From Spiroplasma clarkii (GTDB lineage Bacteria; Bacillota_I; Bacilli_A; Mycoplasmatales; Mycoplasmataceae), in NCBI RefSeq assembly GCF_002795265.1, contig NZ_CP024870.1, positions 62,001 through 126,000 on the forward strand: 64,000 nt of DNA. Direction: 5' to 3'. This document shows positions 48,407-63,098 of the stretch, piece by piece. The translations under genes were made by a program, and so were the position numbers. The notes below the pieces were generated by a model that was not told where the DNA came from, ran no database searches, and saw only the letters and a program-made list of their open reading frames with translations. Within the stretch, counting starts at the first letter, position 1. The number at the start of each line of letters is the position of its first letter.

Positions 48407-48455
48407 TATAATTAAGTTATAAATATTTATCAAAAATAAGATAAAAAATGATAAA
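48407..48455 (+). promoter_or_regulatory. Promoter and GATA/TATC elements of the third DeoR gene
   Basis: -10 TATAAT at 48407-48412. Downstream TTTATC (48426) and two GATAAA (48440 and 48450, 10 bases apart) resemble the elements before lacA and lac modules 2 and 3, suggesting autorepression by blocking elongation. Confidence 0.45.
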
Positions 48456-48477: not shown

Positions 48478-49251
48478 ATGGATAAACTTAAAAAAGGAGA
48501 ACGTTTTAAAATCTATACAAAATACTTATTGGCTGAACAATCAGTTACTATTAAAGCATTTTATAGTTTTGCAATAGGTGCAGGTATTCCCGAAATTACT
48601 GCAAGGCGAGATTTAAAACTATTAGAAAACTTAAATTACATAACTTTAGAAATGGGGTTAGTTAAATACAATTCAGCAATTGCTAGAGAAACCACAAGAG
48701 CTGAAAAAACCTTGGAAAATAAAGAAGAAAAAATTAAAATTGCTCGTACAGCAATTAAATTAATTAATTCAGAAGAAATTTTTGTAGGTCCAGGAACAAC
48801 TTGTGAAGCATTTGTTAAAAGCATTAACAAACCTATAAAACTTTTATATACTAATGGTTTTGAAATAGCAAAATTAGCAGAAAACAATGAAAACATTAAA
48901 AGAGTTGTAGTGATTGGGGGTAAACTAAGACCCCAATCTGGGGCTATGTGTGGACCTATTGCTGTCAAAACCCTTGATAATTTAAGGTTTTCTCAAGCAT
49001 TTATTACTATTACTAACATCAATGATAAATTAGATATGTTTAATAATAATGAAGATGAAGCATTTTTTACATCAAAAGTCATTGAAAATTCAAATCAAAC
49101 AATTTGTATGATTGATGTTACTAAGTTACAAGTGGATTCTCATGGAAACATTATTACCAATGCAGCAAACATAGATTACTTTGTTTTAGATCAACAACCA
49201 CTAGATGAATGAACAGAAAAATTAAAGATAAATTCTGAAATAAAATGATAA
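48478..49251 (+). CDS. DeoR-family regulator, probable lac repressor (copy 3)
   Basis: 257-residue DeoR protein. Helix-turn-helix around FYSFAIGAGIPEITARRDLKLLENL; sensor domain with SEEIFVGPGTTCEAF. ATG 48478 is chosen since GGAG sits six bases before it; the longer upstream frame lacks a ribosome site. Located just before lacA and, like LacR of lactococci, it probably senses tagatose-6-phosphate or a related sugar phosphate. Its promoter and the three lac promoters share GATA/TATC elements in 10-base steps. The last codons overlap the lacA operator. Confidence 0.85.
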
Positions 49252-51213: not shown

Positions 51214-53091
51214 ATGAAAACAAAAGAGAACAAAATAGAAGGGCAATCAAAACTTAAGCAATTTGGCGAAAAAGCTTTAAACGTTGTACAAAAAATAACC
51301 CAATCCACATTTGTTTCGACAATTATGGAAGGTTTTATTTTGGTGATGCCAATCATTATTACATCAACAATTTTCATTCTAGCTGCTGAGCTAGCACCAT
51401 CATTTGGTTATAAATGAAAAGATTCTGATGGGAATGTGATTATCGAAGGTTATGCAATGTATAGTGCATTCTGTTGAAGAATGTATAATCTATCTTACGG
51501 AATATTAGGCTTTGCACTTGTGATTGCTCTTTCGTCTAGAATGACAGAAAAGATTTCTTCAAAATTAAAATCAAATCAAAAAATGAATATTATAATTGTT
51601 TGTATTTCTACAGCAATTGCATATTTATTAACTTCAGTACCAAACACAGTAAGTGTAGTTGCAGGTGCAACTGAGCTCAATGTTCTCAGTTTAATAACTG
51701 CAATTTTTGGTGCAAAAGGAATATTCATAGCTATGTTAACTGGATTATCTGTGCCTTGAATCTTCTTCTTATGTTATAAATTTAATATAACAATTAGATT
51801 ACCAAAACAAGTACCTCAAAATATTTCACAAGCATTTTTAAATATCTTCCCAACATTCTTTATAATTATTATTTATGGTGTCTTGGGATGAGTGTTTGTA
51901 CAATTTTTGGGTGACACAATGTTAAATGCAATTTTTAATGGCTTGACTCGTGCAAAGAGTTATTGATTCTTTATTGCTTGATCAATGGTATTATCATTGA
52001 CATGGTTTTGTGGAATTCATACAAGTGTTTGAAATGGTATCACAAGTACTCTTGATGCACTTGGACTTCAAGAGAACATTGATTTGCAAGCAGCTGGAGA
52101 ACACCCATCTAATCTATGACCAAACCCATTTAGAATGGGAGCATACTCAATGGGAGGAACTGGAGCACAAATTGCAGTTCCTTTCATTATTATCTTATTT
52201 TGTAAATCAAAACAACTAAAATCAATTGGAGTGGTAGCACTTGTACCAATATTGTTTCAAGTTAATGAACCAATCTTATTTGTTCTACCATCAATTCTGA
52301 ACCCATTAATGTTACTACCTTTCTTGGTGGCACCATTAGTTAATACAATTATTGGTGTGATTTTTGTTTATGAATTTGGGATGAATGCAAGCACTGTATC
52401 GATGCCGTGATCGATGCCAATGGTTGTTGCAGTCCCAATTGCAAGTAAATTCCAAGCTACTTCATTTATCTTGCCATGAATTTGGTTTGGAGTATCATTT
52501 GGAGTGTGAACACCATTTGTATTAATTCAAGATAAAATTTATCACAAAAGAGAATTACTGACAGCTGAACCCAATGAATATGTTGACTATAGAAATGGAG
52601 TTCAGTACTTAAGAAATTATCTATTTAATTGTCAAAAACATGATGAAATTAAACAACTTAAGTTAGATGAAAAAAATAGAGTTAACAGCTTAGAAATGAA
52701 CTTATTAAATACGGAAATTTTGAATGTTCAAACAGATGGAGATAAAGTAGTTGAAATTTTAGTTATTTGTATTGGTGCAGGAACATCTGCAATGTTGGCT
52801 GAAACTATTAATAAAACATTTAGTGATGGACAAGTTAAAGTCAATGCTAAGGCTTGTTCATTAGGAAATTACTCAGAGTTTATTGACAACACCAACATTG
52901 CAATCATTTCACCACAAGCAAGATCTTCACAAAAGAGTATAACTGATTATGCAAAAACAAAAAAAGACTTAATTGTGTTCCAAACAAAAGGGCCAGAGTT
53001 TTTAGAAATGATCAATGACAAAAAAATTACAAAAACTAAAATTATTGAAAAAATTAAAGAGTTAAGAGGAATTGCATATGAAAAAAATTAA
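51214..53091 (+). CDS. lacE: Lactose-family PTS EIICB (module 1)
   Basis: 625-residue PTS transporter for a beta-galactoside or related sugar. The EIIC membrane domain (about 30-440) has the family block VPILFQVNEPILF; the EIIB domain at the C-terminus has the phospho-Cys519 in VICIGAGTSAMLAE. Partners LacF (EIIA) and LacG follow. The charged linker between domains differs among the three copies, as does part of EIIC, so the three could prefer different sugars. RBS AAGGGGAA precedes ATG 51214. Cellobiose-type sugars remain possible. Confidence 0.88.
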
Positions 53092-54523
53092 ACTAGGAAC
53101 AGCCACAGCTGCCTTTCAATGTGAGGGGCACTTAGAGACAGATGGCAGAGGGAAATGTATTTGAGATGATGTGCTATTAAATGATAAAAGTATTGCCAAG
53201 TACAATCCTGAACCAGCAAGTGACTTTTACAAGTCATTTGATGTTGACATTAAATTAGCAAAAGAATATGGTATTGAAGTCTTTAGACTTTCAATTGCTT
53301 GAAGTAGAATTTTCCCAACTGATGCCTCAACAGTTAACAAAAAAGCTGTTGAACAATATCACAAAATGTTTAAAGCTATGATTGAAAAGGGTATTATTCC
53401 TAATGTAACTTTACATCACTTTGATTCACCACAATGGTTTGTAGAAAAAGGAGATTTTTTATCAAAAGGAAACATTGATGATTTTCTAGTCTTTGCTGAG
53501 TTTTGTTTTAAAGAATTTAGTGAAATTAAATACTGATCAACTTTAAATGAAATCAATGCTTATTCAAGTCATAAAAATCTAAAGTCTGCATTACCACCAT
53601 ATTTTAAACTAGAATATGGACATTATTTCAAACAACAATATAATATGGTTTTAGCACATGCAAAAACTGTGAATCTATTTAAAAAATTAAAAATTGATGG
53701 AGAAATTGGTGTTCCTTGTAATGTATGTCCATTCCAACCTCTCGACAAAGAAAATTCTGAAGATGTTTTTGTGGCAGATAAGGCAAATGCAATAGTAAAT
53801 TGAAGTTTCTTAGAACCAATCACCTCAGGAAAATATTCAACCAAAACAATTGATTTAATTAATAAAGTTTTAGAGAATTATGATTTTATTTTCAAACCTC
53901 AAAGCAAAGACCTTGAGGAAATTAAATTGGCAAGAGAAAATTTAGATTGAGTTGGAATCAATTATTATTACACAACATTTGTCACAAAACCAGATGAAAA
54001 AATTGATTTCTCAGTTAATACAACTGGAGAAAAAGGTAAGACAAAATTCAATATCCCATGACTTTGAAAAACTGTTCAAAAACCAGGTGTTAAATCAACT
54101 CATTGAGATTGACCAATTTATCCTGAAGGGTTAGCAATTGTCATTAAATGAGTTAGTGAAAAATATAATTGCAAGCTTCCAATTCATATAACTGAAAATG
54201 GTTTTGGAGACTTAGAAGATATAACAAAAACACCATTTATTAAAGATTATGATAGAATTCAATATATTCAAGATCACTTTGATGTAATCCAAAGATTAAT
54301 TGATGAAGGGGAAAAAATTGAACACTATTATTTGTGAAGCCACATGGATATGTTTTCTTGAACAAATGGATATAACAAAAGATATGGTCTATTTTATGTT
54401 GATTTTGAAACTCAAAAAAGATTTGAAAAATTAAGTGCCTATTGATGATTAGAAAAATCAAAACAAGATAGATTTGATGAAAAAGTTGACTTAAAAGAAC
54501 TAGAAAAAAAACTTGGAAAGTAG
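53078..54523 (+). CDS. lacG: 6-phospho-beta-galactosidase, GH1 (module 1)
   Basis: 481-residue GH1 enzyme splitting the phosphorylated disaccharide brought in by LacE. Acid/base Glu158 in TLNEIN (where GH1 usually has FNEP) and nucleophile Glu373 in HITENGFG. The phosphate site Ser427-Trp428-x5-Lys434-x-Tyr436 has the spacing of lactococcal LacG; Trp after Ser favours 6-phosphogalactosides over 6-phosphoglucosides. ATG 53078 lies inside the lacE end, overlapping by 14 bases. Codons include many TGA Trp. Confidence 0.92.
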
Positions 54524-54532
54524 TGATTAATT

Positions 54533-54853
54533 GTGAACAACAGAGAAGCAGTTACCAAAAAAGGTCTTGAACTAGTAGCATATGCAGGAGAAGCTCGAAG
54601 TTACATTCTCGAAGCTTTGGAAGATGCTAGAAATGGAGATTTTTCAAACATTGATAATTTAATGAAAGAAGCTGAAACATTAATCAACCATGCTCACAAA
54701 GCACAGTTTGACCTTTTAGCAACTGAAGCTAGAGGAGAATATGCTGATGTTACCTTAACTATGGTACATGGACAAGATCATTTGATGACCACAATTCTTC
54801 TAAAAGAACTTGCAGTTTCACTAATAGAATTGTGAAAATTGAATAAAAAATAA
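54533..54853 (+). CDS. lacF: Lactose-family PTS EIIA (module 1)
   Basis: 106-residue EIIA that passes phosphate from HPr to the LacE EIIB domain. Active His79 in MVHGQDHLMT, with HAHKAQFDLL and EARGE helices as in the lac/cel EIIA family; works as a trimer in relatives. The start appears to be GTG 54533, at the position of ATG in the other two copies (58647, 62778). After a TGA Trp the protein ends in WKLNKK. Confidence 0.9.
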
Positions 54854-55080
54854 TGACAACTTGATTAACAATTATTGGGGTAGCTCTCTTTTTACTGGGG
54901 TCAATGTTGTTCATGTTTATTCAAATAAAATTTAAGAAAAGGATAAGAGAACAAAAAAATGAAAATTTTGAAGTAGCAAAGGATCAGAAGTGGATTTATA
55001 CCAAAATAATCTTAAACACTATTGCAGCACTGCTAATTATTTGTGGAACTGTGCTTGCCTTTTCAAAATTATATATTTAA
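54853..55080 (+). CDS. Small two-transmembrane protein of lac module 1
   Basis: 75 residues, not a family I recognise. TM1 (about 3-24), basic loop 25-41, then AKDQKWIY (42-49) and TM2 (about 53-70), ending FSKLYI. Start ATG overlaps the lacF stop by one base (TAATG), so translation is coupled. TGA Trp at codon 4. Copies 2 and 3 share about four fifths of residues, with the motif unchanged; the protein at 22968 has the same topology. A helper of LacE or EIIA is a reasonable guess only. Confidence 0.75.
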
Positions 55081-55150: not shown

Positions 55151-55191
55151 ATGATAAAAAAATATCATTTTTTATCATTTTAAGATACAAT
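55151..55191 (+). promoter_or_regulatory. lac operator and promoter of module 2
   Basis: ATGATAAAAAAATATCAT inverted repeat (55151-55168) and a further TATCAT at 55173. GATA (55153), TATC (55163) and TATC (55173) are spaced by exactly 10 bases; -10 TACAAT lies at 55186-55191, 13 bases after the last TATC. Confidence 0.65.
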
Positions 55192-55200
55192 ATTGGTGTA

Positions 55201-55257
55201 ATGAATATATCTGATGATTTAAGGGGGTGATCAGAAAAAATAGAGGAAAATTCCTAG
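55201..55257 (+). CDS. Possible 18-residue leader peptide of lac module 2
   Basis: Frame MNISDDLRGWSEKIEENS, ATG nine bases after the -10 box, so the transcript would start only a few bases before it. The first 12 codons are nearly the same in module 3 (59315), then the sequences diverge by indels. Codons 7-10 contain the sequence AAGGGGGTGATC, nearly full complement of the 16S rRNA 3' end. It may be a leader peptide or merely RNA structure. Confidence 0.35.
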
Positions 55258-55281
55258 GTTATTTATAATGACGGAATTTTT
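55210..55281 (+). promoter_or_regulatory. Leader RNA hairpins of lac module 2
   Basis: Hairpin A: TCTGAT (55210-55215)/ATCAGA (55230-55235), loop containing AAGGGGGTG. Hairpin B: AAAATTCC (55247-55254)/GGAATTTT (55273-55280) ending in T, resembling a weak terminator. Both are conserved before module 3. Together they suggest attenuation or stalling control. Confidence 0.45.
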
Positions 55282-55335
55282 GATACAGAATGTATACTTA
55301 TTTAGAAAAAATTAATAATATTGAAAGGGAATAAT

Positions 55336-57204
55336 ATGGAAAAAGAAAAGACTTTAAAGACTTCTAAACTCAAGGAGTTTGGTCAAAAAACATTAGATTT
55401 TATAAATAAAATTACCAGTACTTCATTTGTTACAACACTTATGGAAAGTTTCATTTTGATCATGCCAATAATTATTACCTCAACTGTATTTATTCTAGCA
55501 GCTGAGTTGGCACCATCATTTGGATATAAGTGAAAAGATGCAGATGGAAATATTTTAAATCAAGGTTATGCTACTTTTAGCGATTTTTGCTATCGTATGT
55601 ATAATTTATCATACGGAATTCTAGGATTAGCCTTGGTAATAGCAATCTCTTATAAACTAACTGAAAAAATATCACCAAAATTACAAGCAGACAGAAAAAT
55701 GAATGTAATTATCATTTGTATTTCATCTGTTTTGGCTTACATGCTTTTTTCAGTACCAAATTTATGGAGTGTTGGGGCAGAAGAAACACAAACAAATGTA
55801 CTGTGAATCATTTCTGCAATTTTTGGCGTTAAAGGTTTGTTCATTTCAATGTTAACTGGGATGAGTGTACCTTGATTATTTTTACTATTTTTTAAATATA
55901 ACATAACTATTAGATTGTCAAAACAAGTACCTCAATCAATTTCACAATCATTCTTAAATATCTTCCCAATTTTGTTCACAATTATTATTTATGGACTACT
56001 TGGCTGAGTATTTATTGAATTTACAGATAACACAATGTTAGATGCAGTTTTTAAAGCATTAACTCCATTGCTAGAAGGTGCTAAAAGCTATTGGTTCTTT
56101 ACTCTATGATCAATAGTAATCTCATTTACTTGATTTGTAGGAATTCATCCTAATGTTTGATATGGAGTTACTGGTTCATTAGGGCCGCTCGCTGTTGCAG
56201 AAAATGTGGCAGCTTTTGAAGCAGGTGAACAAGCAGTAAATTGAAATGCAGATCCATTTGCAACAGGAGCTTACAATATGGGAGGGTCTGGAGCACAAAT
56301 TGCAGTTCCCTTCATTATCATCTTATTTTGTAAATCAAAACAACTAAAATCAATTGGAATGGTGGCAGTTGTGCCGATTCTGTTTCAAGTCAATGAACCA
56401 ATCTTATTTGGATTACCAACAATTTTAAATCCAATTATGCTTATACCAATGATTGCTGCACCATTACTTAATTCAATTATAGGAATCATTTTTATCTTAG
56501 GTTTTGGTATGAATGCAAGTATCATCCAGCTACCATGGAGTATGCCAATTGTGATTTCAATTCCAATATCTAGTCAGTTCCAGGCAAGTTCATTTATCTT
56601 GCCTTGAGTGTGATTTGGAGTCTCATTTGCAGTTTGAATGCCATTTGTATTAATTCAAGATAAAATAAATTACAAAAAAGAATTATTGGTCAATGACCCA
56701 AATGAGTTTGTGGACTATAGAAATGGTGTCCAATACATTAAGGATGCTATGTTTAATAGGGCCAAACATTTAGAAATTAAAAATCTTAAAGCAGCGCAAA
56801 AAGCTGAAGAAGTTGTTCAAGAAACTCCAGTTATAAAATCAACTCTATCAAAATTAGAAACTATTGAGGCGTTGGTAGTTTGTATTGGTGCAGGAACATC
56901 TGCAATGTTGGCTGAAACTATAAATCAAGCCTTTAAGGATTCAGAAGTATCTGTTAATGCAAAAGCATGTTCAGTAGGAAACTACTCAGAGTTTATTGGT
57001 AATACAAATATTTGTATAATTTCACCACAAGCTCAAACAGTACAAAAAGCAATTGATAGTTTAGCATTAAATAAAACTGATCTTGTTGTACTACAAACAA
57101 AAGGTCCAGAGTTCTTAGAGATGATACAATCTAAAAAAATTACAAAAACCAAAATTATTGAAAAAATTGAGGAATTAAGGAGAAAAGTAAGTGCAAAAGT
57201 TTAA
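55336..57204 (+). CDS. lacE: Lactose-family PTS EIICB (module 2)
   Basis: 622-residue copy of the transporter. EIIC core VPILFQVNEPILFGLP and EIIB with Cys516 in VCIGAGTSAMLAE are conserved. Compared with copy 1, the periplasmic-side and membrane segments (around 55540-56260) differ much, and the EIIC-EIIB linker is shorter with AAQKAEEVVQE. So specificity may differ. ATG 55336 is chosen because AAAGGGA sits five bases upstream; an in-frame TTG at 55321 is part of that site. Preceded by a conserved ~140-base leader. Confidence 0.88.
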
Positions 57205-58636
57205 ACTAGGAACAGCCACAGCTGCCTTTCAATGTGAGGGGCACTTAGAGACAGATGGCAGAGGGAAATGTATTTGAGATGATGTGCTATTAAATGATAA
57301 AAGTATTGCCAAGTACAATCCTGAACCAGCAAGTGACTTTTACAAGTCATTTGATGTTGACATTAAATTAGCAAAAGAATATGGTATTGAAGTCTTTAGA
57401 CTTTCAATTGCTTGAAGTAGAATTTTCCCAACTGATGCCTCAACAGTTAACAAAAAAGCTGTTGAACAATATCACAAAATGTTTAAAGCTATGATTGAAA
57501 AGGGTATTATTCCCAATGTAACTTTACATCACTTTGATTCACCACAATGGTTTGTAGAAAAAGGAGATTTCTTATCAAAAGAAAACATTGATGATTTTCT
57601 TGTCTTTGCTGAATTTTGTTTTAAAGAATTTAGTGAAATTAAATACTGATCAACTTTAAATGAAATCAATGCCTACTCAGGACAAAAAAACATTAGTGCT
57701 GCTTTACCACCATACTTTAGATTGGAATATGGACACTTTTTCAAACAACAATATAATATGGTTTTAGCACATGCAAAAACTGTGAATTTATTTAAAAAAC
57801 TTAAAATTGATGGTGAAATTGGAGTGCCATGTAGCGTAAGTCCAATGGCACCCTTAGATGAAAATAACCCAGATGATGTATTGGCTTCAGATAGAGCAAA
57901 TGCAGTTTCAAATTGAAGTTTTGTTGAACCAATTACAACAGGGGGTTATTCTCAAGAAACTCTTAAATTAATTAACTCAGTTTTAAAAAACTATGATTTT
58001 ATTTTTGAACCACAAGAAAAGGATTTAAAAGAAATTCACCAAGCTGCAAAAAATCTAGATTGAGTGGGAATAAATTATTACTTTACAACTTTTGTAACAA
58101 AAGCTGATGCTGACTTTGATTTTACAATAAATTCAACTGGTGAAAAAGGTAAATCAAAATTTAATGTACCATGACTTTGAAAAACCGCAATTAGACCTGA
58201 TTTAAAATACACTCATTGAGATTGAGCAATTTATCCAGAAGGTCTTGGTCATGTAGTTAAATGAATTAGTGAAAAATTTAACTGTAAACTTCCAATTCAC
58301 ATAACTGAAAATGGTTATGGTGATTTAGAAGACATGACAAAAACACCGTTCATTAAAGATTATGACCGAATTCAATACATTCAAGATCATTTTGATGTAA
58401 TTCAAAAATTAATTGATGAGGGTGAAAAAATTGAACACTACTATTTGTGAAGTCACATGGATATGTTTTCTTGAACAAATGGATACAACAAAAGATATGG
58501 CTTATTTTATGTTGATTTTGAAACTCAAAAGCGATATGAAAAATTAAGTGCTTATTGGTGATTAGAAAAATCAAAACAAGATAGACTTGATGAAAAAGTT
58601 GACTTAAAAGAACTAGAAAAAAAACTTGGAAAGTAG
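57191..58636 (+). CDS. lacG: 6-phospho-beta-galactosidase, GH1 (module 2)
   Basis: 481-residue copy with GTG start (ATG in copies 1 and 3) overlapping lacE by 14 bases. Catalytic blocks TLNEIN and HITENGYG, and the phosphate site [11 protein letters not shown], are intact. The 5' third is almost identical to copy 1 at the DNA level, the middle is divergent from both (for example [17 protein letters not shown]), and the last 300 bases equal copy 3 exactly. This mosaic suggests gene conversion among the copies. Confidence 0.92.
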
Positions 58637-58646
58637 ATGTTAGTTT

Positions 58647-58967
58647 ATGGAAAATAAAGAAGCAGTTACTAAAAAAGGTCTTGAACTAGTAGCATATGCT
58701 GGAGAAGCTCGAAGTTACATTCTTGAAGCTTTAGAAGATGCTAGAAATGGTGATTTTTCAAATATTGATAATTTAATGAAAGAAGCTGAGGCATTAATCA
58801 ACCATGCTCACAAAGCACAATTTGATCTTCTAGTAACAGAAGCTAGAGGAGAATATGCAGATGTTACCTTAACTATGGTACATGGACAAGATCATTTGAT
58901 GACCACAATTCTTTTAAAAGAACTTGCAGTTTCACTAATAGAATTATGAAGGTTAAATAAAAAGTAA
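58647..58967 (+). CDS. lacF: Lactose-family PTS EIIA (module 2)
   Basis: 106-residue EIIA; active His79 in MVHGQDHLMT. It differs from copy 1 by a few residues (MENKEAV, EAEALINHAH, LLVTEARGE) and ends WRLNKK after a TGA Trp. ATG 58647 start, 10 bases after lacG. About 120 consecutive bases of its 5' half match copy 3. Confidence 0.9.
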
Positions 58968-59194
58968 TGATAATATGATTAACAATTGTTGGAACAATTC
59001 TTTTCATACTAGGATTAATCTTGTTTATATTTGTTCAAACTAGGTGAAAACAAAAGGTAAATGAACAAAAGAGCAATAATTTTGAGGTAGCAAAGGACCA
59101 AAAGTGAGTCTATACTAAAATATTTTTAAACACTATTGCAGCATTGTTAATTATCTCTGGAATTGTGTTAGCTTTTTCAAAATTATATATTTAA
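58967..59194 (+). CDS. Small two-transmembrane protein of lac module 2
   Basis: 75 residues. Same layout as copy 1, with AKDQKWVY (42-49) before TM2. The ATG overlaps the lacF stop (TAATG). Three TGA Trp codons (codons 4, 27 and 47) would hide it under standard code. Differences from copy 1 are mostly conservative changes in TM1 and the basic loop (FVQTRWKQKVNEQKSNN), which argues that the frame is under selection as a protein. Confidence 0.75.
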
Positions 59195-59219
59195 AAAGTA
59201 GAGGATACCTCTACTTTTT
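59193..59219 (+). terminator. Terminator after lac module 2
   Basis: Perfect stem AAAAAGTAGAGG / CCTCTACTTTTT with loop ATA. Confidence 0.9.
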
Positions 59220-59264
59220 ATTGTGCATAGACTCCTATTAAAAATTTAGAGAATTTTATAAAAA

Positions 59265-59305
59265 ATGATAAAAAAATATCATTTTTTATCATTTCAAGAT
59301 ACAAT
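59265..59305 (+). promoter_or_regulatory. lac operator and promoter of module 3
   Basis: Same arrangement as module 2: ATGATAAAAAAATATCAT (59265-59282) and TATCAT (59287), GATA/TATC/TATC in 10-base steps, -10 TACAAT at 59300-59305. Confidence 0.65.
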
Positions 59306-59314
59306 ATAAATGTA

Positions 59315-59374
59315 ATGAATATGTCTGATGATTTAAGGGGGTGATCAGAAAGAAATAGCAAAAAAATTCCTTAA
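59315..59374 (+). CDS. Possible 19-residue leader peptide of lac module 3
   Basis: Frame MNMSDDLRGWSERNSKKIP starting nine bases after the -10 box, conserved at its start with the frame at 55201. It contains the same AAGGGGGTGATC element inside the TCTGAT/ATCAGA hairpin; a second AAAATTCC/GGAATTTT hairpin follows (59363-59397). Coding status uncertain. Confidence 0.35.
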
Positions 59375-59451
59375 TTATATATAATGACGGAATTTTTGGT
59401 TTAAAATTTGCACTTATTAAAAATAAATTAATAATATTGAAAGGAAAGAAT

Positions 59452-61335
59452 ATGGAAACAGAAAAGCTATCAAAACCTTCTAAATTTAGGGACTTTGGTA
59501 AAAAGGCCCTAGATTTTGTTCAAAAAATAACTCAATCTACATTTGTTTCAACAATTATGGAAAGTTTCATTTTGGTGATGCCATTAGTAATTACATCAAC
59601 AATTTTTATTCTAGCAGCTGAGTTAGCTCCATCATTTGGATTTGAGTGAAAAGATGACCTTGGTAATGTGACAAACCAGGGCTATGCAATGTATAGTGCA
59701 TTTTGCTGAAGAATGTATAATTTATCATATGGAATTTTGGGGTTAGCCTTAACTATTGCACTAACTTCAAGACTTACTGAAAAAATAGGACCAAGATTAC
59801 AAAGTAATAGAAAAATGAATGTGATTGTTGTTTGTATTTCAGCAACAGTGGCATACTTGCTATTTTCAATACCAAATACAATTGATGTGGCAAGTGGCAC
59901 AACACAAGTTAGTGCTCTAGATATAATATCTGCACTATTTGGTGCAAAAGGAATTTTTGTTGCTATGTTAACGGGTTTAACAGTACCTTGAGTTTTTTAT
60001 CTATGTTATAAATTTAATATAACAATTAGATTACCAAAACAAGTACCTCAAAATATTTCCCAAGCATTTTTAAATATTTTCCCATTAATATTTACAATTA
60101 TCATATATGGAATTTTGGGATGAGTCTTTATTGAATTTTTAGGCGACACCATGTTGAGTGCAATTTTCAATGCACTAACTCCACTGCTAGAAGGAGCCAA
60201 AAGTTATTGGTTCTTCATAGCGTGAGGTATGGTTTTATCTCTGACTTGATTTTGTGGAATCCACACTAGTGTTTGAGCTGGAATTACAGATACCCTTGCA
60301 GCACTTGGTGTTCAAGAAAATGTTGAGTTACTTGCAAATGGAGAACAAGCTACCAACTTATGACCTGGTCCATTTAGTATGGGAGCATACTCAATGGGAG
60401 GGTCTGGAGCACAAATTGCAGTTCCCTTTATAATTCTCTTATTTTGTAAATCAAAACAACTAAAATCAATTGGAATGGTGGCAGTTGTGCCAATCTTATT
60501 CCAAGTTAATGAACCAATTTTATTTGGATTAGCAAGTATTTTAAATCCACTGATGCTATTGCCATTTTTATTGGCACCACTAGTGAATACTATAATTGGT
60601 GTAATATTTGTTCTAGGATTTGGTATGAATGCAAGTGCGGTGGCAATGCCTTGATCAATGCCAACAATAGTTGCAGTACCAATTTCAAGTAGATTCCAGC
60701 CACTATCATTTTTATTACCATGAATTTGATTTGGGGTAAGCTTTGGAATCTGAATGCCATTTGTGTTAATTCAAGATAAAATAAATTACAAAAAAGAATT
60801 ATTAATCAATGATCCAGATGAGTTTGTGGACTACAGAAATGGTGTGCAATTTATTAATCATGCCTTATTTAATAGAAAAAAACATCTTGAAATTAAACAG
60901 CTAAAACTTGATGAGAAAAATAGAGTTAAACTTATTGATGAAAATAACAAGGTTGTAATGCAACAAACAAACTATACTACTTCAGTAGACACAGTTGAAG
61001 TTTTGGTAATTTGTATTGGGGCTGGATCAAGTGCGATGTTGGCTGAAACTATTAATAAAGCATTTAGTGATGGACAAGTTAAAGTCGATGCTAAGGCTTG
61101 TTCATCAGGTAATTACTCAGAATTTATTGAAAATACAAATTTAGTTATTATTTCCCCACAAGCTCGTTCAATACAAAAAAGTATTGATGATTATGCAAAA
61201 GGTAAACAAAACATGATTGTCTTTCAAACAAAAGGTCCAGAATTCTTGGAGATGATAAGTAACAAAAAAATTACTCAAGATAAAATAATAGCAAAAATTA
61301 AAGAATTGAGAGGAATAGCAAATGAAAAAATTTAA
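59452..61335 (+). CDS. lacE: Lactose-family PTS EIICB (module 3)
   Basis: 627-residue copy. EIIC core QVNEPILFGLAS and EIIB Cys521 in VICIGAGSSAMLAE. Large parts of EIIC resemble copy 1 (MYSAFCWRMYNLSYG), others copy 2 (LTPLLEGAKSYWFF), again a mosaic. The interdomain linker is the longest of the three (about LIDENNKVVMQQTNYTTS). ATG 59452 follows GAAAGGAAA. It shares a leader with module 2. Confidence 0.88.
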
Positions 61336-62767
61336 ACTAGGAACTGCCACAGCTGCTTTCCAATGTGAAGGAAATTTAACAACTGATGGTAGAGGAAAAT
61401 GTATTTGAGATGATGTGCTATTAAATGATAAAAGTATTGCCAAATACAATCCTGAACCAGCAAGTGATTTTTATAAATCATTTGATGTTGACTTTAAATT
61501 AGCAAAAGAATATGGCATTGAAGTCTTTAGACTTTCAATTGCTTGAAGTAGAATTTTCCCAACTGATGCTTCAACAGTCAACAAAAAAGCTGTTGAACAA
61601 TATCACAAAATGTTTAAAGCTATGATTGAAAAAGGTATTGTTCCCAATGTAACTTTGCATCATTTTGATTCACCACAATGGTTTGTGGAAAAAGGTGATT
61701 TTCTATCAAAAGAAAATATTGAAGATTTCTTAAAGTTTGCAGAATTTTGCTTCAAAGAATTTAGTGAAATTAAATATTGATCAACATTAAATGAAATTAA
61801 TGCTTATTCAGAGCAAAAAAATATAAAGGCAGCCTTGCCCCCATTCTTCACATTAGAATATGGACAATTTTTTAAACAACAATATAACATGGTTTTAGCA
61901 CATTCTAGAACTGTGAATTTATTTAAAAAACTTAAAATTGATGGTGAAATTGGGGTTCCCTGTAATTTGAGTCCATACCTACCAATTGATGAAAGTAATC
62001 CTGGAGATGTTTTGGCATCACAAAAGGCAAATGCCATAATTAATTGAGGTTTTTTAGAACCAATAGTTTCAGGAGGATATTCACAAGAAACAATTGATTT
62101 ACTAAACTCAGTTTTAGAACATTATGACTTTATTTTCAAACCCCAAAAAACTGATCTTCAAGAAATCAAACTTGCAAGAGAAAATTTAGATTGAGTTGGT
62201 ATTAATTATTATGCAACAAATTTTGTCACAAAACCAGATGAAATAATAGATTTTTCAGTTAATACAACTGGAGAAAAAGGTAAATCAAAATTCAATATCC
62301 CATGACTTTGAAAAACAGTTTCAAAACCTGGTGTTAAATCAACTCATTGAGATTGACCAATTTATCCTGAAGGGTTAGCAATTGTTATTAAATGAGTTAG
62401 TGAAAAATACAATTGCAAGCTTCCAATTCACATAACTGAAAATGGTTATGGTGATTTAGAAGATATAACAAAAACACCGTTCATTAAAGATTATGACCGA
62501 ATTCAATACATTCAAGATCATTTTGATGTAATTCAAAAATTAATTGATGAGGGTGAAAAAATTGAACACTACTATTTGTGAAGTCACATGGATATGTTTT
62601 CTTGAACAAATGGATACAACAAAAGATATGGCTTATTTTATGTTGATTTTGAAACTCAAAAGCGATATGAAAAATTAAGTGCTTATTGGTGATTAGAAAA
62701 ATCAAAACAAGATAGACTTGATGAAAAAGTTGACTTAAAAGAACTAGAAAAAAAACTTGGAAAGTAG
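61322..62767 (+). CDS. lacG: 6-phospho-beta-galactosidase, GH1 (module 3)
   Basis: 481-residue copy. Catalytic TLNEIN and HITENGYG and the Ser-Trp...Lys-x-Tyr phosphate site are conserved. The middle ([18 protein letters not shown] to VIKWVSEKYN) follows copy 1, the last 300 bases are identical to copy 2, and the 5' third differs from both (GNLTTDGRG). ATG 61322 overlaps lacE by 14 bases. Confidence 0.92.
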
Positions 62768-62777
62768 GAATTAAATT

Positions 62778-63098
62778 ATGAACAATAAAGAAATAGTGAC
62801 AAGAAAAGGACTTGAACTAGTAGCATATGCTGGAGAAGCTCGAAGTTACATTCTTGAAGCTTTAGAAGATGCTAGAAATGGTGATTTTTCAAATATTGAT
62901 AATTTAATGAAAGAAGCTGAAGCATTAATCAATCATGCCCACAAAGCACAGTTTGATCTTCTTGTAACTGAAGCCAGAGGAGAATATGCAGATGTTACCT
63001 TAACTATGGTGCATGGACAAGATCACTTGATGACCACAATTCTTTTAAAAGAACTTGCAGTTTCACTAATAGAATTATGAAAGTTAAGTAAAAAATAG
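62778..63098 (+). CDS. lacF: Lactose-family PTS EIIA (module 3)
   Basis: 106-residue EIIA beginning MNNKEIVTRKG, active His79 in MVHGQDHLMT. Ends in WKLSKK after a TGA Trp. It lies 10 bases after lacG, and its stop shares a base with the GTG start of the next gene (TAGTG). Confidence 0.9.

What the first reader, a model, noticed from the sequence alone, without database searches (positions are those of the whole stretch)
55195..59400. Conserved lac leaders with a near-leaderless small ORF and an extended Shine-Dalgarno without a start codon
Before lac modules 2 and 3 the ~140-base leaders share an ATG nine bases after the -10 box, a small frame (MN[IM]SDDLRGWSE), and AAGGGGGTGATC, an 11/12 match to the complement of a typical bacterial 16S 3' end. 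That element lies in the loop of a TCTGAT/ATCAGA hairpin, with no start codon at a usable distance. A second hairpin with T-rich end follows. This could stall or recruit ribosomes to control read-through into lacE.
Basis: partly seen in the sequence, partly recalled or inferred. Interest (0 to 1): 0.72.

Follow-up and report, generated by a model that had tools for sequence, protein, structure and literature searches.

The report
Orphan ribosome-docking site in lac leaders
In a Spiroplasma-type bacterium, two copies of a milk-sugar uptake operon begin with an RNA leader that carries an almost perfect landing site for the ribosome but no gene start behind it, so the leader probably uses a parked ribosome to protect or open up the message; this is plausible from sequence but untested.

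Summary
Before lacE2 and lacE3 lies a ~140-nt leader with an ATG nine bases after the -10 box and AAGGGGGTGATC. This element can form 12 continuous pairs (one G·U) with the genome's own 16S 3' end. It is the strongest such site in the 64-kb window (-20.7 kcal/mol; strongest real gene start checked -16.4). In 20 genus genomes every other AAGGRGGTGATC is antisense 16S DNA. In 248 genomes of the order the only other copy lies antisense to a gene. No start codon lies where a docked ribosome would need one. The core is 36/37 identical between copies, while lacE2/lacE3 fourfold sites are 59% identical, so constraint is likely. No homologous leader was found elsewhere, so covariation cannot be tested. 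Hairpin 1 holds the element. Hairpin 2 has the A-tract/U-tract form of local terminators but is weaker. Spacing from 22 gene starts puts the front of a docked ribosome (about nt 52) at or inside hairpin 2's 5' arm. Best reading: a non-initiating ribosome-docking leader, similar to the STAB-SD stabiliser of cry3A (two RNase J genes are present), possibly also an antiterminator at hairpin 2. Which output operates, and whether the small frame is translated, are undetermined.

The parts
55151..55178 (+). Operator-like double inverted repeat ATGATAAAAAAATATCATTTTTTATCAT of module 2, probably for the DeoR-type regulator encoded at 48448
   Evidence: identical in module 3; a copy with 3 differences lies before lacA at 49245; similar repeats in relatives
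55186..55191 (+). -10 box TACAAT of the module 2 promoter; predicted transcription start about 55198
   Evidence: sequence; start placed 6-7 bases after the -10 box as in the relative Mesoplasma florum (PMC7745072)
55201..55257 (+). small frame of module 2, MNISDDLRGWSEKIEENS (code 4), ATG about 3 nt from the predicted 5' end
   Evidence: sequence; translation not shown
55210..55235 (+). hairpin 1 of module 2, arms TCTGAT/ATCAGA
55221..55232 (+). extended Shine-Dalgarno element AAGGGGGTGATC, module 2, no start codon at usable spacing
55246..55281 (+). hairpin 2 of module 2, GAAAATTCC/GGAATTTTT, weak terminator-like
55264..55269 (+). TATAAT inside hairpin 2, possible second -10 box
   Evidence: sequence; invariant in both copies; not tested
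55323..55328 (+). ordinary Shine-Dalgarno GAAAGG of lacE2
   Evidence: -8.7 kcal/mol
55336..57204 (+). lacE2, lactose/cellobiose-family PTS IIC+IIB
59265..59292 (+). operator-like repeat of module 3
59300..59305 (+). -10 box TACAAT of module 3; predicted start about 59312
   Evidence: sequence
59315..59374 (+). small frame of module 3, MNMSDDLRGWSERNSKKIP (code 4)
   Evidence: sequence
59324..59349 (+). hairpin 1 of module 3
59335..59346 (+). extended Shine-Dalgarno element AAGGGGGTGATC, module 3
59362..59397 (+). hairpin 2 of module 3, AAAAATTCC/GGAATTTTT
59380..59385 (+). TATAAT inside hairpin 2 of module 3, possible second -10 box
   Evidence: sequence
59439..59444 (+). ordinary Shine-Dalgarno GAAAGG of lacE3
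   Evidence: -9.6 kcal/mol
59452..61335 (+). lacE3, lactose/cellobiose-family PTS IIC+IIB

Best explanation
The leaders of lac modules 2 and 3 carry a non-initiating ribosome-docking site. After the lac regulator releases the promoter, the new RNA exposes AAGGGGGUGAUC about 23 nt from its 5' end. The 3' tail of 16S rRNA pairs with it over 12 bases, outcompetes hairpin 1, and holds a 30S subunit or ribosome that cannot start there. The parked ribosome most likely protects the lacEGF message from 5' decay (RNase J), in the manner of STAB-SD. Because its front edge reaches the foot of hairpin 2, it may also keep that weak terminator-like hairpin open and favour transcription into lacE. Shown by computation: the element, its complementarity to this genome's own 16S, its rarity, the missing start codon, the duplication and conservation, and the presence of two RNase J genes. 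Inferred: ribosome binding in the cell, stabilisation, antitermination.
For: 16S tail of the same genome. Strongest anti-SD duplex in the window, -20.7 against -16.4 for the strongest gene start checked. Only non-rRNA AAGGRGGTGATC in 20 genus genomes; in 248 genomes of the order the sole other copy is antisense to a gene, against 42 reversed-control hits. The ATG-to-AGAAA core is 36/37 identical while lacE2/lacE3 fourfold sites are 59% identical and spacers 43-65%. Net binding after opening hairpin 1 about -12.8 kcal/mol. The genome's own SD-to-start spacing (8.2 +/- 1.6, n=22) puts the P site at about nt 37 and the ribosome front at about nt 52, against hairpin 2 arms at 49-57 and 51-59. RNase J twice. 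Precedent for an SD without a start codon as 5' stabiliser: STAB-SD, PMC4113751 and PMC3997798.
Against: Only two copies, paralogous and in one genome; gene conversion between modules occurs (lacG) and could inflate identity. No leader homologue, hence no covariation. The ATG and bases before the element are conserved as strongly as the element itself, which a pure docking site would not need. Hairpin 2 is weaker (-7 to -9) than the gene-end terminators seen (about -10 to -17) and lies within the range of intragenic chance hairpins. In module 3 an edge at nt 52 would only partly open hairpin 2.
Confidence: 0.42

Rival explanations
1. Translation-dependent attenuation: ribosomes start at the near-leaderless ATG, are slowed by the internal extended SD, and by reaching the stop codon beside hairpin 2's 5' arm they prevent the weak terminator from forming, so translation capacity sets read-through into lacE.
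For: ATG and frame up to the element are conserved. Despite a 2-nt indel, both frames stop within about 1 nt of the same place, right after AATTCC(T) of the hairpin 2 5' arm. A ribosome edge at or beyond nt 57 abolishes hairpin 2 in both leaders. Leaderless mRNAs are suggested for a few genes in the relative Mesoplasma florum (PMC7745072). Mollicute terminators can be short, about 5 A-T and 2 G-C pairs (PMC4245973).
Against: In this A+T-rich DNA a stop at that place is fairly likely by chance. There is no codon-level conservation test. Hairpins 1 and 2 are not alternatives. Termination at hairpin 2 is unproven.
Confidence: 0.2
2. A second promoter: TATAAT inside hairpin 2 drives transcription independent of the upstream operator, and the conserved blocks are promoter and operator DNA, not RNA elements. 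TCTGAT/ATCAGA could be a protein-binding site.
For: TATAAT and its flank are invariant. The -10 box fits the M. florum consensus TAWAAT, which has no clear -35, and an A lies 6-7 bases after it (PMC7745072). The inverted repeat has TGAT/ATCA ends like the operator.
Against: A TATAAT is expected about once per 400 bases in such DNA (own estimate from composition). It gives no reason for a 12-base match to the 16S tail. The TGAT/ATCA spacing (14) differs from that in the operator (8 and 18).
Confidence: 0.15
3. Nothing functional: leader similarity comes from recent duplication or gene conversion of modules 2 and 3, and the 16S match is chance.
For: Modules exchange sequence (stretches of lacG near 100% identical). 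By base composition a match to AAGGRGGTGATC is expected at about 0.1-0.3 per genome. The clustering of differences within the leader is only mildly significant (longest identical run P=0.04, top two P=0.015).
Against: The flanks of the leader (pre-operator spacer 59%, lacE about 73% nucleotide identity) are old, so a conversion tract would have to be short and recent. The 12-mer is strongly under-represented across the order, yet kept in both leaders.
Confidence: 0.18
4. Ribosome standby or loading site for lacE itself.
For: A strong upstream 30S site in front of weaker lacE SDs (-8.7 and -9.6).
Against: It lies about 100 nt upstream of the lacE start, and the lacE SDs are predicted largely accessible (0.87 and 0.58 unpaired), so help is not obviously needed.
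Confidence: 0.05

Closest known systems
STAB-SD of Bacillus thuringiensis cry3A (5' mRNA stabiliser)
   Same: Strong SD near the 5' end of a leader of similar length (129 nt there, about 138-140 here), no translation start, complementary to the 16S 3' end; RNase J present.
   Different: Here the pairing is longer (12 bases; the cry3A element is 9 from memory), the 5' end would come from a regulated promoter and not from processing, a hairpin holds the element, and an ATG lies upstream. No stability data.
ermC/ermA-type ribosome-stall leaders
   Same: Short leader frame, hairpins, ribosome held near the 5' end, and stabilisation of the message.
   Different: No drug involved and no sign of an SD-masking switch: the lacE SD is not locked in a stem.
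pyrBI-type translation-coupled attenuators (from general knowledge)
   Same: Leader frame running into the 5' side of a terminator-like hairpin.
   Different: No regulatory codon or U run, weak hairpin, internal SD.
prfB internal SD (AGGGGGU) with programmed frameshift (from general knowledge)
   Same: AGGGGGT followed by TGA in a short frame.
   Different: TGA is Trp here, and no slip site at the needed spacing is shared by both copies; not a frameshift site.

Membership tests
STAB-SD 5' mRNA stabiliser | SD sequence able to pair strongly with the 3' end of 16S rRNA | tested here: met
   -20.7 kcal/mol, 12 pairs with this genome's own 16S tail
STAB-SD 5' mRNA stabiliser | No start codon served by that SD | tested here: met
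   own-genome spacing predicts a P site at nt 35-41, which holds no ATG/GTG/TTG
[quoted passage not shown]
   23 nt from the predicted start; start not mapped
STAB-SD 5' mRNA stabiliser | RNase J (5'-3' exonuclease) present in the host | tested here: met
   two genes above the TIGR00649 cut-off
STAB-SD 5' mRNA stabiliser | Confers longer mRNA half-life through 30S binding | not testable with these tools
   needs RNA decay and toeprint experiments
Translation-coupled transcription attenuator | Intrinsic terminator between leader frame and structural gene | tested here: inconclusive
   hairpin 2 has A-tract/U-tract form but only -7 to -9 kcal/mol and an 18-nt loop
Translation-coupled transcription attenuator | Alternative (mutually exclusive) RNA structures | tested here: not met
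   hairpins 1 and 2 coexist and do not overlap
Translation-coupled transcription attenuator | Leader frame conserved as a peptide | tested here: inconclusive
   only two sequences; one non-synonymous change, then an indel
Rfam riboswitch or known leader family | Match to a curated RNA family | tested here: not met
   no match at gathering score in the window; the best weak match in leader 2 is an unrelated plasmodium snoRNA far below its cut-off

The most novel reading that the evidence does not exclude
A ribosome or 30S subunit docked on an orphan extended SD acts as an antiterminator: its front edge opens hairpin 2, so read-through into lacE reports ribosome availability, with the small frame as a second way to the same end. 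This would be control of a sugar operon by non-initiating ribosome docking.
Probability: 0.15. Interest if true: 0.8.

Novelty: new variant of a known kind. Interest (0 to 1): 0.5.

Why it matters
If ribosomes really dock here without starting, it would be a clear case of an SD used for mRNA fate and not for initiation in a mollicute, a group with little known post-transcriptional control. The near absence of such 12-base sites elsewhere in the order suggests that cells avoid ribosome traps, and that this one is kept on purpose.

Tried and rejected
Homologous leaders: none by blastn in 60 relatives, where essentially only the operator matches; none by core pattern in the genus with 3 mismatches or the family with 1; none relevant in genome contigs (two unrelated hits) or viral contigs; no full-length match in plasmids or phages. 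LacE relatives: only G011 has an intact close homologue, behind lacA-lacB without this leader, and G005 has it in pieces; the genome contigs protein scan confirmed no relative. Rfam: nothing. A start codon hidden after the element (ATC, ATA, GTG): wrong spacing, or frame lost between copies. prfB-like +1 or dnaX-like -1 frameshifting: no slip site shared by both copies. Switch between hairpin 1, hairpin 2 and the lacE SD: short complementarities exist (-6 to -7) but hairpin 2 wins (-9), and its probability barely changes when the element alone is bound.

Full report
SETTING. The window lies in a 1.56-Mb genome that reads TGA as Trp, a Spiroplasma-type mollicute (inferred; species not identified). 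A DeoR-type regulator, lacA, lacB and a ROK kinase precede three tandem modules of lacE (PTS IIC+IIB), lacG (6-phospho-beta-galactosidase), lacF (PTS IIA) and a 75-aa frame without family; the 75-aa frame of module 3 was seen only in part. Module 1 has no such leader and appears to be read from the promoter before lacA. Modules 2 and 3 each follow a terminator and have their own operator, promoter and leader.

THE OBSERVATION. Each leader has TACAAT, nine bases, ATG, a short code-4 frame, AAGGGGGTGATC, hairpin 1, hairpin 2 and the lacE ribosome site; about 138-140 nt from predicted start to lacE. The genome's own 16S genes end GGATCACCTCCTTTCT, so the element can form 12 continuous pairs, one of them G-U.

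HOW UNUSUAL. Duplex energy with the 16S tail is -20.7 kcal/mol, the strongest on either strand of the window. Among 35 gene starts the strongest is -16.4. AAGGGGGTGATC occurs nowhere else in the genome. AAGGRGGTGATC in 20 genomes of the genus is otherwise always the antisense of 16S. Requiring a non-C base after it to exclude rRNA, 248 genomes of the order yield only the two leaders and one site antisense to a gene start region (L111), while the reversed pattern occurs 42 times (42 is my count of the table). Markov models of the window give 0.1-0.3 expected per genome for either pattern. Long SDs thus look avoided in this order, and these two are the exception.

CONSTRAINT. Between modules 2 and 3 lacE is 68% identical in protein, and fourfold sites are 59% identical. 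In the intergenic region the operator is 39/40, the ATG-to-AGAAA core 36/37, hairpin 2 30/36 and the lacE RBS 27/30 identical, while spacers fall to 43-65%. Under the fourfold rate, 36 or more of 37 has probability about 1e-7. Differences within the leader cluster only mildly (P 0.04 and 0.015), so a small conversion tract is not excluded; the modules do exchange sequence in lacG.

RELATIVES. Only the operator is shared with relatives. The intact close LacE homologue in the genus (G011) sits in a single lacR-lacA-lacB-lacE-lacG operon without such a leader. So the leader appears to be a novelty of the duplicated modules in this lineage, and covariation cannot be tested.

STRUCTURE AND GEOMETRY. 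Both leaders fold to the same two hairpins. Each hairpin beats about 99% of shuffles of its own segment, and the two-hairpin region about 98%, while full leaders are unremarkable. They do not exclude each other. Hairpin 2 has the A-tract/U-tract form of terminators at gene ends in the same window but is weaker; mollicute terminators can be short, about five A-T and two G-C pairs (PMC4245973). From 22 gene starts in this window the start codon lies 8.2 +/- 1.6 nt from the base paired to the second C of CCUCC. Applied to the element, the P site falls at nt 35-41, where there is no start codon, and the front edge at about nt 52, at the 5' arm of hairpin 2 (nt 49-57 and 51-59). Blocking to nt 51-55 largely opens hairpin 2 in module 2 and, by 55, in module 3.

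MECHANISM. The simplest account is a docked, non-initiating ribosome near the 5' end. Strong SDs without a start codon stabilise messages in Bacillus (STAB-SD of cry3A; PMC4113751, PMC3997798), by blocking RNase J1. Two RNase J genes are present here. Antitermination at hairpin 2 is an additional, less certain output. Translation of the small frame from the near-leaderless ATG is the main rival: the ATG is conserved and both frames end next to the hairpin 2 arm, which a ribosome at the stop would cover.

LIMITS. No RNA data; two paralogous sequences only; species not identified; promoter and start predicted from consensus.

Noticed in passing
248 genomes of the order: AAGGRGGTGATC outside rRNA is about 14-fold rarer than its reversed control (3 against 42), suggesting avoidance of full-length anti-SD complements in mollicute genomes.
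   Followed up: partly
window 53078-54523, 57191-58636, 61322-62767: The three lacG copies have patches of near 100% identity next to patches of about 70%, a sign of gene conversion between modules.
   Followed up: partly
window 54853-55080 and 58967-59194 (a third copy begins near 63098): A 75-aa frame follows lacF in the modules, conserved (69% between modules 1 and 2) but without an NCBIfam match; part of the module, function unknown.
   Followed up: no
L008, L009, L010, L011 (G004, G010, G001, G003): The lac operator-like repeat occurs nearly intact in genomes of the genus that lack a close LacE homologue; it may serve another regulon.
   Followed up: no
window 55264-55269 and 59380-59385: A perfect TATAAT with an A 6-7 bases downstream sits inside hairpin 2 in both leaders and could be a second promoter.
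   Followed up: partly
L054 (G005:C2:716500-724500): A relative carries lacE broken into three pieces with in-frame stops, apparently a decaying lac operon.
   Followed up: no
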